64,000 bases of DNA from Rusavskia elegans (taxonomy: Eukaryota > Ascomycota > Lecanoromycetes > Teloschistales > Teloschistaceae): contig SAUG01000107.1 in the NCBI GenBank assembly GCA_011316305.1, positions 17,690 through 81,689 on the forward strand, written 5' to 3'. A program made the translations under genes and the position numbers. Shown here piece by piece: positions 1 through 45,302 of the stretch. The notes under the pieces were generated by a model. It saw only the letters and a list, made by a program, of their open reading frames with translations. It was not told the DNA's origin and made no database searches. Every line of letters starts with the position of its first letter. The stretch's first letter is position 1.

Positions 1-950
1 AGATAATAAATTCAATATAGTAAATTATTAAAATATAATATTTCTATAGATTAAAAAACGTTATATTCGAATCTAGCTATAGCTATAGATATAGTTTAAA
101 TTATTAAATAATAAAGGAAATCTTGTATAGATTATTATAACTAGATCCGAATTGCTATAAAAGTAAAATTATATTATTACAAGGTATTTTTATTATAAAA
201 ATAATTAAAAAGAAAATATTTAAATGTGTTTAATAATTATCTTAATAACTAGTAAAAGAAGTTATCTAGAAGAAATAAAGAGCGATATATATAGTAAAAA
301 TAGTCGATAGTACCAATAGATAGCCGTCCGCTAAAAGTTCCCGTTATAAAGGTCGGCTATAGCGGCTATAGACGGCTATAGACGGCTATAGATAATTAGT
401 TTCGTTTAACTAGCTAATTTTCCAAAATATTTCTATAGAATCGTAGACGTAATATATTAAACCTCTGCAATATATCGCTTGCATTTTTGCTGATATTAAT
501 CCGCTTTTAATATTATCGGCAAATTTAATTGGAATTACTAGCGCGCGATATTAAAATCCTGCGTATAAAATCCGAAGATTATAATATTACTTTTAATACG
601 GTATATCTACTGTTCGCTATATAGTTCGAAGTAGATAATAGTAAAAAGATAAAAATTATTAGCGAAATATTACGATATTCTATTTTTCTAATCGAAGATT
701 ATAGCTGCCGAATTTATATTAGAAGCTGTTAGAAAAAACGTTACTATAAATTATAAAACTCGTATATATCTAGAGTTTTAAAAGATCTAATTTAGATATA
801 TACGCGGGATTTATAATAATAGTAGATATCGAAAAGTTATATAGCGTTAAAGAGTTATAAGATTTATATATAAGTTTAGGAAAGCTCGCGTAAAACTCTG
901 ATTGATCAGGTTTATATAATCTGGTATAATCAGTTGTTTAACGGAAAAAA
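1..950. repeat. AT-rich, RIP-like relic block
   Basis: The block is very rich in A and T, with abundant TA, ATA and TATAG steps and no open frame of useful length. This is the usual look of repetitive DNA mutated by repeat-induced point mutation (C to T at CpA). Base composition changes sharply to normal genic DNA at about 930-960. No transposase or reverse transcriptase motif can be recognised, so the original element is unknown. Confidence 0.6.
353..392. repeat. short tandem repeat, about 10-bp unit
   Basis: About four consecutive copies of a decamer close to CGGCTATAGA lie inside the AT-rich block. They are the only GC-containing periodic stretch in it. Confidence 0.6.
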
Positions 951-1285
951 GTAGAGAAAGCCGCAGCCCGCCCGACGATAGGTAGATGAAATTTTTTGGC
1001 ATATGCGGCATCTGCTGCGCCTGCACCTAAAAGGGTTTTGCTGATGTTATTATACCAGTTGCTCTGCCATTCGTTTAAATCCGGCGAACTGCAGCTCGAG
1101 TCGTACAACGCTTGATCTTTTTTGGTCAGTCCCAATGCAGATCAGACCATCTACAAAGATCGTATGTCAGCCTCGTTGTTAAGACGGTCCGCTCGGGTAA
1201 GACTACGTTTTTCAACTTCACGGCATTTCCTTGCAACCGGCATTTTTGTCTTCATTGGATTCTGCGAGAAGGCTGTCAATTGACA
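951..1285. other. leader region of the HET gene
   Basis: This is the transition from AT-rich relic to genic DNA. A 65-codon minus-strand frame (938-1135) has protein-like composition, but I do not recognise it and it has no partner exon. I see no other gene. The HET promoter must lie here. Confidence 0.4.
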
Positions 1286-3320
1286 ATGGAGTATAGGCCT
1301 CTGGACCGAGAAAATGATGAGATAAGACTTCTGAGTATCCTCCAAAGTACTCACGATGGACAGCGACCAGGATTTTTGCGAGATGAAGAGGCAAGCGATC
1401 CGCAAGACCTGATCGAATGCCAGCTTCATCACTATACTTTTCAAGGGCCGCAGCCAGCGGAGACGTCAAATGAACTACTTTACCATATTGAGCAGCCTGC
1501 GCTCGATTGGAATTGCGAGTACGATTCGTCAAGCTTCGAACGTCCAACCACGTGGCGCTACTTGTGGGGCGACTACGTAGCCCTGTCCTACGCATGGGCT
1601 GACCCCAGCGAAACAGGATATATCCTTCTCAATGGCAATCGGATGAAAGTAGGAAGAAATCTGGAGTCAGCTCTTCGTGTTCTACGCGATAAACAGCCCA
1701 TGAGGACTGGATGCAAAGTATGGATCGACGCGCTGTCGATAAATCAGCAGGATGTCGGTGAACGTGAACAGGAAGTGAAACGTATGTATCGCATTTACAA
1801 AGGCGCGTGTGCTGTGATAGTCTGGCTTGGATCGGAACCCGAAGAGAGCAATAAAGCGATGGAATTAATCCGTGTCTTGTCGCAGGCATGTGAAAGTGGT
1901 AAAGACCGGGTGCTAGGAGATTCATTGCGCGAGCATCCGGACCTTCTGGGTAAAGGCTCGTGGCGAGCTTTGAGTCAACTTTTGAGTAGGCCTTACTGGA
2001 ATCGTTTGTGGATTCTACAGGAAGTTGCACTTGGAAAACATCAAACTGCCATTCTGTGCGGGCACGCGGCCGTTACTTGGCAACAACTGTTTAGTGCAGT
2101 ATACACGTTCGGTACTTATAACATTGATGTGATGTTCTCTTTAGTCGAGCGCGAGACCAAGGAGGCGGGCATCACGACTTCTGGTCTGAATCGAAACAGG
2201 ATCATACATCTCAACGACGAGCAATATGTTCAGAATGGAGGGGCTGAACCGCAAGTCATGTGTATGCTGGACCTAGGTCGCAAGTCTCTCTCAACCGATT
2301 CAAGAGACAAAGTCCATGGTTTACTAGGTATGATGAAGGAGTCCGTTGTTTCCCGGATCAAAGTTGACTACAATGCCGATCTGGCCGAAGTCTTCACGGA
2401 ATTTGCGAGAGCATTTATATCTGCTGGTAGGTAAACCTTGATCTACTTTCTAGAAACATCCCAAGGATTGACAGTACGAAGATAACAGCCTCGAAATTCT
2501 CGAACAATGTACTTGGCACGAGAGACATATGCCTTCGTGGGTACCGGACTGGACGGATATGGATCACTATCGCCTTTACAGCGGTCGATCCAACTATTAC
2601 GCCACAAAATCCCTGGCCGCCCACTACCGGTTTTCAGTCAATCAATACCAAGCTATGTCGCTTTATGCAAGAGCCGTGAGGATTGATAGAATTGATGGGC
2701 TTGGTCGGAGCTATTACGAGCAACAACCTAGCAGTACAAAGCCAACAGATGGAATCACTCAATCAACGGGAGTCCTCAACGGTTACTCTTCGGACGTAGG
2801 CCTTCGAGAAGCTGTCTGGCGTACGTTCGTAGGCAATCGCACGCCGACAGGTAAACCTGTTTCTCAAGATTATCACCTCCTGCTTAGCTGCGTTCCGGAA
2901 GCGGGGGAAAAAGCAGAAAGGAGCTGGAGAGGTCTGAAAGCTTTCAGCCGCCTCGTCAACCAAAATTCTGATTTCTGCGTCGCTGGGAAAAGGCTTCGTT
3001 CTTTCTTTCCAAGCGATCGTACTGTCGTCGACAATCCCAGAGCCGCACGAGACCCTATGGAACAGATGTTTCGGTATCTAAGGACGCGACGGTTGATAAC
3101 TACAGCGACTGGGTTGCTTGGTATTGCGCCTCATAAGTCGCAGCGAGGGGATTGCATTTTCATAATTCTAGGTTGCAATGTCCCACTCGTATTGCGACCG
3201 TTGGGTGGGCAGTATTACAAGGTGGTCGGCGGCTGTTATTTGCACGGATTCATGGAAGGGGAAGCAGTGAATGCTTTATCTTTCGGTGTACTCCACACTG
3301 AAGAGATCATACTGATCTAG
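1286..3320 (+). CDS. HET-domain (heterokaryon incompatibility) protein
   Basis: Two exons, 1286-2430 and 2489-3320, give 658 aa. The 58-nt intron has a GTAAAC donor, a TTGAC branch site and an AACAG acceptor. The frame is open further upstream, but the start at 1286 gives the usual HET opening (MEYRPL..., then EIRLL). The core is present: VALSYAW, then WIDALSINQQD, then the YWNRLWILQE segment. Exon 2 opens into LEIL and SWVPDW, the standard middle part of these proteins. HET proteins trigger cell death after fusion of incompatible strains; the domain is TIR-like. This gene appears intact. Its partner or allelic trigger cannot be inferred from the neighbours. Confidence 0.9.
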
Positions 3321-3444
3321 TCTCCCCTACTCACTTTGTTTTACCATTTGAGTAGATGCCGTTTTGTCTCACCTCTCCAATTAAGACACTGTATTGAGAG
3401 GTCGGCGTGATTAGCGCTTTTTTTAGTAACGCGACACGCTGGTA

Positions 3445-3974
3445 TACAACAGAGTTTTCGGAAAGTTAATTGCAAGCCCAGCCGTTTTGGTGGGGCCCCT
3501 ACCAAAAATCGATTTAAATCTATAGTATTTTACTCAAATAAATACGATCGTAATAAATCGAAATTTATAGATAAAGAGGTTTTACTAGATTTTATTAGGT
3601 CTACTAGCTTTTAACTTTTTTAGAGTCGATTTAGTTAGTATTTTAAGGGGTTTAAAATAAGGTATTCGAGATCTTAGAAGTAAAAGGAGGTTATCTACCC
3701 GTTATCTACCCGTTTACCCGCTAAATCCTAGACTCGCGTTAAATCCTTCCCTCTATACCGCGATCTTTCTATTTAATAGACCTCTAATTATCTAGTTCTT
3801 TTTAAAAGGATATAGATATTTAATAGAAGATATTTTATTAAAATTAATAAAGATTTCTACGTTCGTAGCGTTAAGTAATTAACGTGTACTCTAAGCTTAC
3901 TCTAGGCGCTAAATACGCCTAAAACTGCCGCAAACGGCTAGGCTTGCAATTAACTTTCCGAAAACTCTGTTGTA
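3445..3974. mobile_element. MITE-like element with long terminal inverted repeats, copy 1
   Basis: The left end (3447 onward, CAACAGAGTTTTCGGAAAG...) and the reverse complement of the right end (to 3972) match over about 40 bp with very few differences. TA dinucleotides flank both sides (3445-3446 and 3973-3974). The interior is AT-rich with no coding frame, so the element is non-autonomous and probably RIP-mutated. TA target duplication is known for Tc1/mariner/pogo (Fot1-like) elements; assignment to that group is inference. A diverged second copy lies at 33100-33616. Confidence 0.85.
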
Positions 3975-4196
3975 AAGTTTCAAATCCGCACATGGGGGGG
4001 CTGTCTGGGGAGGGAGACCCGAAATCTAGAGAGACATATTTCAAGTTCGAAACAGCAAATCAGGCGTAAATTAAAACTTCTCGAGTATCGAACTGTTGTT
4101 GGATAAAGATACTTCAATCGAATACCACCGTTGACTATGAAAGTGACATAACCTTCGGGCTCACTGCGCCACATGTCAAAATCAGTGTTTCTTTTC

Positions 4197-40585: not shown

Positions 40586-42280
40586 TCATTGTGCGCGCCT
40601 GGCAGTAATGCTTACGTCTGCCGCCCCAGAGACGGCTATCAGGAGCGGCGCGCCGAGAGCCAGGGAGCGTTCTCTACTGGCTCGCTGTCTCCTAACCGCT
40701 TCTAGCTTCCAGTCTTTGTCATAGTCTGGAGTGTCTGAATGATCAGGGCTGCTGGGGACATCGTCGTCGTTGGCTTCGGCACTGTCTTTATCTTCGTCCC
40801 CACTGTTGGGAATGGTGGAAGGGGTAGGACTGTTGGGAATGGTGGACATGACACTTGGAGAACTTGGAGGGTTGCTAAGTGTATGTGTCAAGTTGGACAC
40901 TTGTTCCTGGAGAGACTCAAGTCGCTGTAACTGTTGAGCAGTATCATCTTCACGTCGTTGAAGTTGCGTCTCGTGTCTTTGTTGTTGAATCTCGTTCTGC
41001 CTCTGGGTGTATTGGTGCTGTGTTCTCTCGCTGTCCAAAGCCATCATGAGTCTCCGTGTATTCTCATCCTGTCTTCTATTGTTCTCGTTGTATTGTCGTT
41101 GCGCATCCTCAGCCAGTCTTCTCTCTTGTGCGAACTTCTCGTCGCGCTCGCGCTCTCTGACCTCGGATTGATAGAGGCGGCGTTCCATATTCTCGTGTGC
41201 TTTGATACCCTGTTGCAACTGTTGCTGTAGCGCCTGTATTACCTGCTTGCTCCTCTCCTCACTATCCGCGAGCAGCTGCCGGTAACTGATCTGAAGATCC
41301 TGCTGACCCCTCTCCATTCTTGATATTATCCCTTGACTCTTTTCGGCTTCTTTACGTAGCATCTCAAACTGCTCCTTGTCTTTTTCCACCAGCGCTTGCT
41401 TCTTTTCCTCCTCAAGCTCTTTCAGTTCCTTGGCGTACTTCTCTTATGACTGTTGTAGCTCACGTTCCACCTCTATCCCAGCGCTCGTGTCTTGCAGACT
41501 CTTGTGTTGGTCGACGAGCTGAGTCTGGATGTCAAGTACTGCTCGTCTCCGGAGGCTTATCAGGTAATCAATGATCTTCAGAGCCGACCCCTTGTCATCA
41601 CTGTGTCGGAAGGTCCGGCTTCCTCTCTCGATCATCAAGCCCCACCAATTTTTGGTCTCCGCAAGCTCCTTCTCGCGCCTGGCACCAGTTGGGGAGGAAA
41701 GACCGGAGTCGTCCAACTTTTCCCACATAGTCGTTGCCAGGATAATATTAGGATAGAAGTTATCTCCGCAAAGCTTTTTGAAGACCGAGAGATTCTTGGC
41801 TGTGGAGCCGCTGAAGCGAACATCGGTGATACGGTGCAGGTATATTATACCAGAGAGTTTGACGTTCTTGCGGTACATGTTTGCGAGGTCTCCCGAAATT
41901 GTCTTCAACACGTCGGTGTCACTTCGATTCGTATCATCGAAGCCTGGAGTATCGAGAAGGAAGACACGCCTTCCACTTGGGTGAAGGAACCCATACGACC
42001 GAACATCGCTAGTACCTGGTGTCATGCCCGGTCAGCGCTGTGCTCCAAGATCGGATTCTGTACGATGGATGGGCTCTGCTTTACATGACTGCAAATGGTG
42101 TCCGATTACAATCTCTGTGTCAACAAGTTTGGAAATGAAGGTGCTCTTCCCAGCTCCAGTGGTTCCCATCACAGCGATGACAACATCGTTATCGCTGATT
42201 CGATTAGCAAAACCGCTACTTATAGGATAGCATCATTCTTACTTCAGAGCCAACTCGTCATCAGGACCGGAGCTAGACAT
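40586..42280 (-). pseudogene. AIG1-like P-loop GTPase with long coiled coil, one in-frame stop
   Basis: Exons 42280-42243, 42194-42085 and 42015 onward encode MSSSGPDD..., the P-loop VMGTTGAGKST, the G3 motif LLDTPGFDDT and the family block GIIYLHRITD...YPNIILATTMWE. The introns are 48 and 69 nt with canonical ends. In the last exon TAA (41444-41446) interrupts an otherwise continuous frame. It continues through about 180 residues of Gln/Arg/Glu-rich coiled coil and a Ser/Pro/Asp region to 40586. CAA to TAA would explain the stop. A 240-residue GTPase without the coiled coil might still be made. The family is common in fungi with unknown roles. It is divergent from the fusion gene at 42710. 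Confidence 0.75.
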
Positions 42281-42709: not shown

Positions 42710-45302
42710 ATGAGTGTCCGTCATGCTTTGGACACCATGTGGATGCGCCGAACGCAATCCACGGTGACTGACACCACCGACCCCGAAGGACCGCAAACCG
42801 GTGCCCCACCTTCTCAAAGGACGACTAAACCTTCTCAAAGCAAGGAAAAACCTTCTCAAAGCACGAAAAAGGCGACCGTTGGGACGGATGCCAGTTCCCA
42901 AGACGTCTTCATCGCCGTAATGGGCAGCACAGGATCGGGCAAAAGTACACTTATATCCAAGCTTGCAGGTGATCAAGTCAAAATAGGGCATGGCCTGGCT
43001 TCATATAGGCTTTTGTCCGCTAGCAGCTGTGTAAAGGACTGACTCCTATAGGTACTCAGGAAGTCAGTATACACCACTTCAACTATGATGACAACACCAA
43101 AGTTCATCTCATCGATACCCCCGGATTTGACGATTCAGATAAGTCGGATTTCCACGTTCTGACAGAAATAGCTGCCTTTCTTCAAACATCTTATCAAGAT
43201 GGATTGAAGCTGAATGGCATCATATACCTCTACCGTATTACCGACAACCGCTTGCAAGGCTCTCATAGACGCAGTATGAGCATCTTCCATAAGATGATTG
43301 GTGGTAACGTGTACCCAAATATCATCTTGGCATCCACGAGGTGGGAGCTGGAAGATCTGGCCACGGGTAAAGCAAGAGAAGCTTCGCTTATCGATCAGTC
43401 GGACTTTTGGAGCAAGATGAGACAGGAAGGGTGCCAAGTCCGGCGACACATGAATACCAAGGAATCTGCAATGGAACTCGTGCGTTATTTTGTCAAGCAG
43501 AGAACGGACAAAATAGTCTTAGATCTGCAGGATGACCTCGTGACAGAAAACAAGAAGTTAGCTCACACGGCTGCTGGAAAAGAAGCCTGCAGCCAGCTTT
43601 CCGAGGAGGTCGAGAAGATGAAGCTCCAAGTCGAATATGCCAAGCTCGCCCTACAAGAAGCCCTTAGGAACCACGATAAGCAGGCTCTTGAGCGGTATAA
43701 AGAGAGGGTTGACTGGACCAAAAAGCTGGAGAAGCTCCAGAACGATAACAGGACCTCGGCCCAAAGAATGCAACGAGACTTCGAAGAGGCCACCAAACGC
43801 CACGAAGCAGTCATCAAAGGCTTGATGAATGCACGAAGAGAGTTGGATGAATCGAACAGTAGGAGCGAGAGGAAGCTGGCAAACCAAATGACAAGACAAT
43901 CCGAATCAACGTCATCCTGGTCTCTTCCCATTATCCAAGCCCGCAGGCCGCAAAACCGATCAAACTCACCACTGTCAAGGCTATTTGGATTTACATCACA
44001 CTCACCTACGGGACCCTCGTACCCAGTCTTTGCAACGTCCTCTCGGCCAGTGTGGTCTCCTGAAGTCGTCCAACGTCATGTCCCAAACCCCTCTCAAAAT
44101 AGATGGAGCTCACAGGCAGAAGCCTCGTTTGCAGCTCCGTTCCAATCTACAAGTGGGGCCCTGACCGCTTCGTCTTCCACTGCAAGTCCACAAACTCCGT
44201 CTTTAATTCAAAGAACATCCCGACTCCAGACAAGGACATTAAATGATGATCATTATGACCTGGACGCGATCGTTGATCGGTTACTTGACGTTTGCGGCAG
44301 CCGGGCCGGCAGAGAGGCCCAGCTCCTTGAACAAGAAATAAAGTGGCTCTGCCAGAAGGCCCGGGAAGTTTTCTTATCGCAGCCGATGTTGTTGGAGCTC
44401 GAGGCGCCATTAGAAGTGGGTCCGCATCCTACCCCCATATTTGCCGAGTCATCTCTAATTGGGATGGGAAACATATACTTGGAGATATTCGAGGCCAGTA
44501 CTACGATCTCCTACGACTGTTCGAAATCCACGGCGGATTTCCACCGGCGTCCAACTATCTGTTCCTTGGGAATTATGTTGATGGTGGGAAACAGAGTTTG
44601 GAGACCATCTGTCTGTGTCTTGCTTACAAAATCAAGTACCCGAAGAATTTTTTCATGCTACGGGGAATTTATGAAACCGCTGCTATGAATCGCGTGTGTG
44701 GGTTCTATGATGTGTGTAAGCGTCGGTATAGTATCGGTCTTTGGACAAGCTTTATCGACGTGATGAATTGCATGCCAATAGTAGCCATCATCGGCGAAAA
44801 GATAATGTGTATGAGTGGGGGGATTAGCCCCGATCTGAATAGCATGATTCAGATCCGAAATATTATGCGTCGTACAGATGTAAGTTTGGCTTTCCGTCCG
44901 AACATTCATTCGGGGTTGGAGGATGTGCAGCACCGATTTCACGTCTTGGTACCTTTGCTCCAACTGATATCTCAATGGCAAATGTAACAGGTCCCTGAAC
45001 GTGGTTTGATGTGCGATTTGCACTGGTCCGATCCAGACGCGGCAATCCGGGGCTGGAGCGGAAATGATCGAGGAATCTCCTTTACGTTTGGATCCGACGT
45101 CGTGACGAGGTTTTGTGCAAAGCACGATGTTGATCTTATCGTACGAAGCCACCAGTACACCCCCGAGTTCTTCTGCGACAAAAAGCTGGTAACCGTGTGG
45201 TCTGCTCCCAGTTCTGTGGAGAATTGCCCCAACGCCGCTGCTATTCTATCCATTACTGGAGACTTGATGGTGAGCTTTCAGGTAGGAATGTCCGACTCCT
45301 AG
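42710..45302 (+). CDS. AIG1-like GTPase / coiled coil / PP1-like pseudophosphatase fusion
   Basis: Exons 42710-43004, 43052-44419, 44485-44879 and 44991-45302 join in frame to 789 aa. P-loop [10 protein letters not shown] (72-80), G3 LIDTPGFDD (from 120), [10 protein letters not shown], a coiled coil (about 265-390), then a Ser/Pro linker. The same open frame then enters PP1 ([30 protein letters not shown]); later exons give [35 protein letters not shown] and [10 protein letters not shown]. Catalytic motifs are changed: DIRG for DIHG, GNYVDGG for GDYVDRG, GIYE for GNHE, SGG for HGG, and the Tyr of NYCGEFDN is lost. Only the first Asp, the RG Arg and the His of RSHQ remain. Intron 1 starts AT instead of GT (43005), so expression is uncertain. 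The intron at 44420-44484 is modelled. Confidence 0.8.

What the first reader, a model, noticed from the sequence alone, without database searches (positions are those of the whole stretch)
42710..45302. GTPase-coiled coil fused to a catalytically dead PP1-like domain
The AIG1-like GTPase, its coiled coil and the first ~50 residues of a PP1 catalytic domain lie in one uninterrupted frame (43052-44419), so the fusion does not depend on splice guessing. The rest of PP1 follows in two further exons. Nearly all metal and active-site residues are replaced (PP1 numbering: H66R, D92N, R96G, N124I, H125Y, H173S, Y272 lost; D64, R221 and H248 kept). I know of no described fungal protein joining these domains. 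It could act as a GTP-controlled scaffold or decoy that competes for PP1 regulators.
Basis: partly seen in the sequence, partly recalled or inferred. Interest (0 to 1): 0.88.

Follow-up and report, generated by a model that had tools for sequence, protein, structure and literature searches.

The report
GTPase fused to dead PP1 phosphatase
In orange lichen fungi a GTP-switch protein has gained a copy of the housekeeping phosphatase PP1 that kept its fold residues but lost its active site, possibly as bait or scaffold; the copy in this particular genome itself looks partly broken.

Summary
The fusion is real. A GIMAP-like GTPase, a coiled coil and the start of PP1 share one open exon (43052-44415). 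The rest of PP1 follows in two exons at Glc7's intron positions. Seven of 12 catalytic residues are replaced. Rusavskia elegans has the same fusion and four of the same losses; unnamed protein P0003 has the same junction.

Over most of its history the PP1 part was not neutral debris. Against the genome's own Glc7, silent sites are saturated but pN is 0.24, with no stop in 284 codons. Of 38 non-catalytic PPP-invariant residues 3 changed, of 12 catalytic ones 7 (p=7e-4).

Another fungus carries the same GTPase-coiled coil fused to a dead casein kinase 1.

Best reading: an integrated bait on a GTP switch. Function is inferred; docking-groove residues are not specially conserved.

The parts
42710..43004 (+). 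exon 1 by homology: N-terminal tail and P-loop (GSTGSGKST, residues 72-80) of the GTPase
   Evidence: ATG at 42710; ends as in the Xanthoria relative P0001 (...GHGLAS|CTQEV)
43005..43051 (+). intron 1 by homology (47 bases); begins AT instead of GT, ends AG. Unspliced, the frame stops after 110 residues. A scan (donors 42930-43045, acceptors to 43111, 39 bases or more) found 13 GT-AG pairs that keep the frame; all 13 alter the P-loop/switch I stretch
43052..44415 (+). exon 2: rest of G domain (DTPG at 43114-43125), coiled coil (about 43570-43917), linker (to 44256), first 53 PP1 codons (from 44257); no stop
   Evidence: helices and low-confidence linker by the P0001 model
44416..44474 (+). intron 2 at Glc7's first intron position; donor GTGGGT, but ends AT instead of AG. 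A cryptic CAG ending at 44498 would keep the frame and remove ILGDIRGQ
44475..44879 (+). exon 3: PP1 residues 61-194 with H66R, D92N, R96G, N124I, H125Y, H173S
44880..44990 (+). intron 3, GT-AG, at Glc7's second intron position
44991..45302 (+). exon 4: end of PP1 (to 45281), then a six-residue tail VGMSDS and stop read from what corresponds to Glc7's third intron; same tail in R. elegans
40586..42280 (-). head-to-head partner gene: related GTPase-coiled coil without PP1 (36% identity); in-frame TAA at 41444-41446 where R. elegans P0082 has lysine; inferred start codons of the pair 430 bases apart

Best explanation
An ancestor of the Xanthoria/Rusavskia lichen fungi fused a genomic copy of glc7 (introns included) to the 3' end of a GIMAP-like GTPase-coiled-coil gene. 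The phosphatase part lost catalysis but kept the residues of the fold (supported by sequence; not assayed). The most likely mode of action (inferred) is an integrated bait: a PP1-directed effector, toxin or non-self factor binds the dead PP1, and the GTPase-coiled coil changes nucleotide state or oligomer and signals, perhaps through the head-to-head partner GTPase that has no bait. In the window's strain this pair carries three damaging-looking changes, so the local allele is probably weakened or being lost, as happens often in recognition genes (last clause: general knowledge).
For: One frame across the junction in the three sequences that reach it: window, P0002, P0003. Four catalytic losses shared with R. 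elegans, so loss began before the split. PPP-invariant non-catalytic residues kept 35 of 38 while 7 of 12 catalytic ones changed (p=7e-4); window-Rusavskia differences fall on 0 of 31 invariant and 22 of 152 variable non-catalytic sites (p=0.029), so fold residues seem still spared after the split. No stops although about 8 would be expected for 160 neutral replacement changes. The first 53 PP1 codons differ 18/53 between window and Rusavskia, against 3/73 in the compared part of the next exon (p=1e-5) and 8/101 in the linker (p=8e-5), as a diversifying surface could. The same GTPase-coiled coil in Mollisiaceae P0016 carries a CK1 domain with HRD to HRN and no DFG; P0079 has a HeLo match, a family of fungal cell-death domains (role per PMC12881547 passages). 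Fungal NLRs are reported with putative integrated-decoy kinases (PMC12258605, passages).
Against: No expression, binding or phenotype data. Docking grooves are not specially kept: 13 of 24 positions against 180 of 269 overall (p=0.18); RVxF core 5 of 6 (p=0.67). Window allele: non-canonical donor and acceptor, and a stop in the partner. R. elegans' gene model also skips the P-loop end and about 60 PP1 residues, so its copy may be damaged too. PP1 exons 3 and 4 differ from R. elegans no less than the linker does (3/73 and 11/102 against 8/101, p=0.36 and 0.63). More window-private than Rusavskia-private changes in PP1 (17 against 6, p=0.035), as relaxed constraint gives. The fast N-terminal segment could be relaxed rather than selected; no relative's DNA was available for dN/dS. 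The CK1 parallel is a single gene model. The HeLo match covers 67 of 205 profile positions. In PMC12258605 only one NLR of the 26 in head-to-head pairs carried a non-canonical domain, so the pair analogy is loose.
Confidence: 0.38

Rival explanations
1. GTP-controlled scaffold or competitor in ordinary cell physiology: the dead PP1 sequesters Glc7 regulators or substrates when the GTPase switches, with no role in recognition.
For: Fold residues kept with active site lost; the PPP pseudophosphatase PfPPP8 is a cell-division component (PMC10317984, passages).
Against: Docking-groove positions not specially kept. Narrow distribution: only P0002 and P0003 among the 120 listed of 148 relatives show a PP1 domain. 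An apparently decaying allele is odd for a housekeeping regulator.
Confidence: 0.24
2. Locus in terminal decay: once coding, now a pseudogene in this lineage and perhaps across the clade, with no present function.
For: Intron 1 begins AT, intron 2 ends AT; stop in the partner; window branch 0.61 against 0.15 for Rusavskia; 17 against 6 private changes; PP1 exons 3 and 4 no more conserved than the linker; awkward R. elegans model.
Against: No frameshift or stop in the 2376-base homology-based reading frame; G domain 169/175 identical to R. elegans; invariant fold residues spared after the split, 0 of 31; in-frame cryptic splice options exist.
Confidence: 0.32
3. Two neighbouring genes mistaken for one.
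For: P0001 (Xanthoria sp. 1) ends just before the PP1 part, although on a 7.3-kb contig.
Against: One exon reads through without stop in the window and in P0003, and R. elegans is annotated as one protein; PP1's own start methionine is missing.
Confidence: 0.03

Closest known systems
PP1 catalytic subunit (Glc7), PPP family
   Same: Sequence (about 60-66% to the listed fungal PP1s), intron positions, fold residues
   Different: 7 of 12 catalytic residues replaced; fused behind a GTPase; three-codon deletion at 253-255, one-codon insertion near residue 78
PfPPP8, PPP-type pseudophosphatase of Plasmodium (PMC10317984, passages read)
   Same: PPP domain with losses in the GDxxDRG metal motif; described there as the first PPP pseudophosphatase
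   Different: Apicomplexan cell-division protein; here PP1-derived, fungal, fused to a GTPase
AIG1/GIMAP and Toc34 GTPases
   Same: Best fold matches GIMAP7, Toc34, GIMAP2 for the P0001 model
   Different: P0001 is below the Pfam AIG1 cut-off (22.9 against 27 bits); long coiled coil and PP1
Putative integrated-decoy fungal NLRs (CHK2-like kinases in Sordariales, PMC12258605, passages read)
   Same: Duplicated housekeeping signalling enzyme at the C-terminus of a nucleotide switch
   Different: GTPase-coiled coil instead of a NACHT/NB-ARC protein; catalytic residues lost here
P0016, Mollisiaceae GTPase-coiled coil with CK1-like domain
   Same: Same GTPase family and layout with a dead Ser/Thr signalling enzyme
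   Different: Casein kinase 1 instead of PP1; separate fusion; one record

Membership tests
Active PP1 / PPP phosphatase | Metal ligands D64, H66, D92, N124, H173, H248 | tested here: not met
   Only D64 and H248 kept
Active PP1 / PPP phosphatase | PPP fold residues conserved | tested here: met
   35 of 38 non-catalytic PPP-invariant residues kept
PPP pseudophosphatase | PPP domain lacking catalytic residues, shared by more than one species | tested here: met
   Window and R. elegans share H66R, D92N, R96G, N124I
PPP pseudophosphatase | No phosphatase activity in vitro | not testable with these tools
   needs protein
AIG1/GIMAP GTPase | Pfam AIG1 score at or above cut-off | tested here: not met
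   P0001 22.9 bits against 27; 40 of 61 relatives match at E<=0.001; no match in the own genome
AIG1/GIMAP GTPase | GIMAP/Toc34 (paraseptin) GTPase fold | tested here: met
   GIMAP7 E 7.4e-10, Toc34 8e-8 (model of P0001, not of the window protein)
Integrated-decoy NLR | NACHT or NB-ARC plus C-terminal repeats | tested here: not met
   NB-ARC and NACHT listed only below their cut-offs; none among P0001's six families
Integrated-decoy NLR | Bait binds an effector and triggers a response | not testable with these tools
   -

The most novel reading that the evidence does not exclude
Fungi have a class of recognition proteins outside the NLRs: GIMAP-like GTPase-coiled-coil switches that repeatedly capture a copy of a core Ser/Thr signalling enzyme (PP1 in Teloschistaceae, casein kinase 1 in Mollisiaceae), lose its catalysis and keep its fold as bait, working in head-to-head sensor-helper pairs.
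Probability: 0.18. Interest if true: 0.87.

Novelty: new variant of a known kind. Interest (0 to 1): 0.6.

Why it matters
PPP pseudophosphatases are little known: PfPPP8 was presented in 2023 as the first (PMC10317984, passages). A PP1-derived one, in fungi, fused to an immunity-type GTPase, would add a lineage. With the dead-CK1 relative it gives a testable idea that PP1 and CK1 are targets of effectors or non-self factors in fungi.

Tried and rejected
AIG1 family search of the own genome gave nothing. A search for free-standing dead-PP1 orthologues of 0.55-1.75 times 295 residues showed none by name or rank among the 120 listed of 4809 hits, whose active sites I did not check one by one; a search by R. 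elegans' PP1 part ranked only P0002 itself far above ordinary PP1s, 120 of 4754 listed. Origin from Ppz is not favoured: the Ppz-like gene on C21 aligns without a break over residues 7-271, so it lacks the two introns, and the tree leaves both pseudo-PP1s in an open fork with Pezizomycotina PP1s, on a long stem of 2.58. RIP as the cause is not supported: indices of the gene (0.61, 1.26) are close to the window's (0.72, 1.22). A first conservation test used a calcineurin alignment that ran through introns; it was redone and the p-value for that test fell from 3.2e-4 to 1.4e-4; the figures for it are not used. A first linker count (105/118) overlapped 15 PP1 residues; the recount is 93/101. The intron against PP1 N-terminus comparison with P0003 is not significant (19/53 against 4/20, p=0.26). 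A microcystin-decoy idea (lichen cyanobacteria) was dropped: Y272, C273 and R96, which I recall as toxin contacts, are lost. Structure of the PP1 part was not predicted, because the spliced protein is not contiguous in the window. DNA of relatives was not fetched: the metagenome scans are capped at 0 and I did not try. Papers: searches; no listed title or start of abstract describes a GTPase-PP1 fusion; seven papers were seen as passages only.

Full report
What is there. The window lies on contig C12 of a 44.2-Mb genome. Its closest proteins are from lichen fungi of the Teloschistaceae, Xanthoria sp. and Rusavskia elegans, so the source is taken to be of that group. From an ATG at 42710 a GTPase exon with a P-loop runs to 43004. 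A second exon, 43052-44415, holds the rest of the G domain, a coiled coil, a linker and 53 codons of PP1 in one open frame. PP1 continues in 44475-44879 and 44991-45281, and the frame ends at 45302. An AlphaFold model of the Xanthoria relative P0001 (61 sequences; blocks of the G domain and coiled coil mostly at pLDDT 89-98) matches GIMAP7, Toc34 and GIMAP2 best among solved structures. The PP1 part matches PP1-alpha with E 4.9e-125.

Origin. The genome's own Glc7 (contig C52, 294 codons to this point) has introns after residues 60, 194 and 294; the fused copy has the first two at the same codon boundaries, and its stop codon lies in what corresponds to the third. So a genomic, not a processed, copy was captured, without PP1's own start. 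A tree joins window and Rusavskia copies (100/100) on a long stem in an open fork with Pezizomycotina PP1s; their exact place is unsure.

Conservation elsewhere. R. elegans P0002 (686 aa) has the whole order GTPase-coiled coil-PP1; P0003, an unnamed protein (sources lgn, ena), reaches from the late G domain into PP1 in one frame and ends in intron 2. Among 120 listed of 148 relatives only these two show a PP1 domain. Identity between window and R. elegans is 169/175 in the G domain, 108/116 in the coiled coil and 93/101 in the linker. In PP1 it is 35/53, 70/73 and 91/102 in three segments, plus a three-codon deletion in the window; about 60 PP1 residues are absent from the R. elegans model and were not compared.

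Dead but with fold residues kept. Of 12 catalytic residues H66, D92, R96, N124, H125, H173 and Y272 are changed; R. elegans shares H66R, D92N, R96G and N124I, has Y272F, keeps H125, and lacks H173 in its gene model. Against Glc7, silent sites are saturated (pS 0.88) while pN is 0.24, with no stop in 284 codons and two indels, both in threes. Neutral change would give about 0.052 stops per replacement, about 8 for 160. Using seven PPP paralogues of the same genome, 3 of 38 invariant non-catalytic sites changed, against 78 of 206 variable ones (p=1.4e-4) and 7 of 12 catalytic ones (p=7e-4). Between window and R. elegans no invariant non-catalytic site differs (0 of 31, against 22 of 152, p=0.029), while 2 of 11 catalytic ones do. 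This is the pattern of a pseudoenzyme held for its shape. Part of that history may have been as an active enzyme; only the last comparison speaks for the time after catalysis was lost.

Docking surface. Of six core RVxF residues (recalled) five are kept, of 24 groove positions looked up (recalled) 13, against 180 of 269 non-catalytic residues overall; neither differs from expectation (p=0.67 and 0.18). The groove does not by itself argue for regulator binding.

Results against a working protein here. By homology to P0001 intron 1 should begin at 43005; the bases there are AT, not GT. Intron 2 should end at 44474; the bases are AT, not AG. Unspliced, exon 1 stops after 110 residues, and exon 2 runs out of the PP1 frame to 44688. 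In-frame alternatives exist: 13 GT-AG pairs for intron 1, all of which alter the P-loop/switch I stretch, and an acceptor at 44498 that removes ILGDIRGQ. The head-to-head partner GTPase has a TAA at 41444-41446, where the R. elegans protein has lysine. R. elegans' model also omits the end of the P-loop exon, and its partner protein P0082 starts after the P-loop; this may mean damage there or poor annotation. In the PP1 part the window has 17 private changes and R. elegans 6 (p=0.035), and exons 3 and 4 are no more conserved than the linker. The local allele is therefore probably impaired, while the ancestral gene was under constraint.

A fast segment. The first 53 PP1 codons differ by 18 to 19 residues between any two of window, R. 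elegans and P0003, as much as each differs from Glc7 (16 to 19), although the compared part of the next exon differs by only 3 of 73. This is more than the linker, 8/101 (p=8e-5). It may be diversifying selection or loss of constraint; DNA of relatives is needed.

The wider family. The GTPase-coiled-coil family is modular. Of 61 listed members of 430 residues or more, two match a protein kinase. I scanned 29 of them singly, which adds one HeLo, one SH3 and one PP1 match (P0002). P0016 (Mollisiaceae) carries at its C-terminus a full CK1 domain (E 1e-100 to CK1 epsilon) in which HRD reads HRN, the DFG is gone and the glycine loop is lost. P0098 has an N-terminal kinase with HGDLNSNN and DFG intact, so not every such kinase is dead. 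Two unrelated dead Ser/Thr enzymes on one GTPase scaffold is the strongest hint of a common principle, but it rests on one gene model for CK1.

Mechanism. Shown by sequence: fusion, conserved layout, loss of catalytic residues, kept fold residues. Inferred: the dead PP1 is bait; the GTPase-coiled coil is a switch; the partner gene is a helper. Integrated decoys are discussed for Sordariales NLRs, where head-to-head pairs occur but only one of 26 paired NLRs bore an extra domain (PMC12258605, passages). By analogy I prefer a bait role (0.38) over a locus without function now (0.32) or a housekeeping scaffold (0.24). Novelty: known kinds (PPP pseudophosphatase, integrated bait) in a combination that none of my eight paper searches showed in a listed title or start of abstract.

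Noticed in passing
window 40586-42280, minus strand: Partner GTPase-coiled coil with an in-frame stop at 41444-41446; R. elegans has a neighbouring protein P0082 without it.
   Followed up: yes
protein P0016 (Mollisiaceae sp.): Same GTPase family fused to a casein kinase 1 domain lacking the catalytic Asp and DFG.
   Followed up: partly
window 44257-44415: PP1 N-terminal segment is as different between the three fusion proteins as each is from Glc7, unlike the next exon.
   Followed up: partly
protein P0079 (source lgn): Partial HeLo match in front of the same GTPase, a possible link to fungal cell-death domains.
   Followed up: no
window 1-4000: AT-rich stretch (41% GC) with a TpA/ApT ratio of 1.05 against 0.72 for the whole window; possible old repeat.
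   Followed up: no
G000:C51:219098-219976 (L015): Third GTPase-coiled-coil match of this genome, 34% identical; no PP1-part match was reported on contig C51.
   Followed up: no
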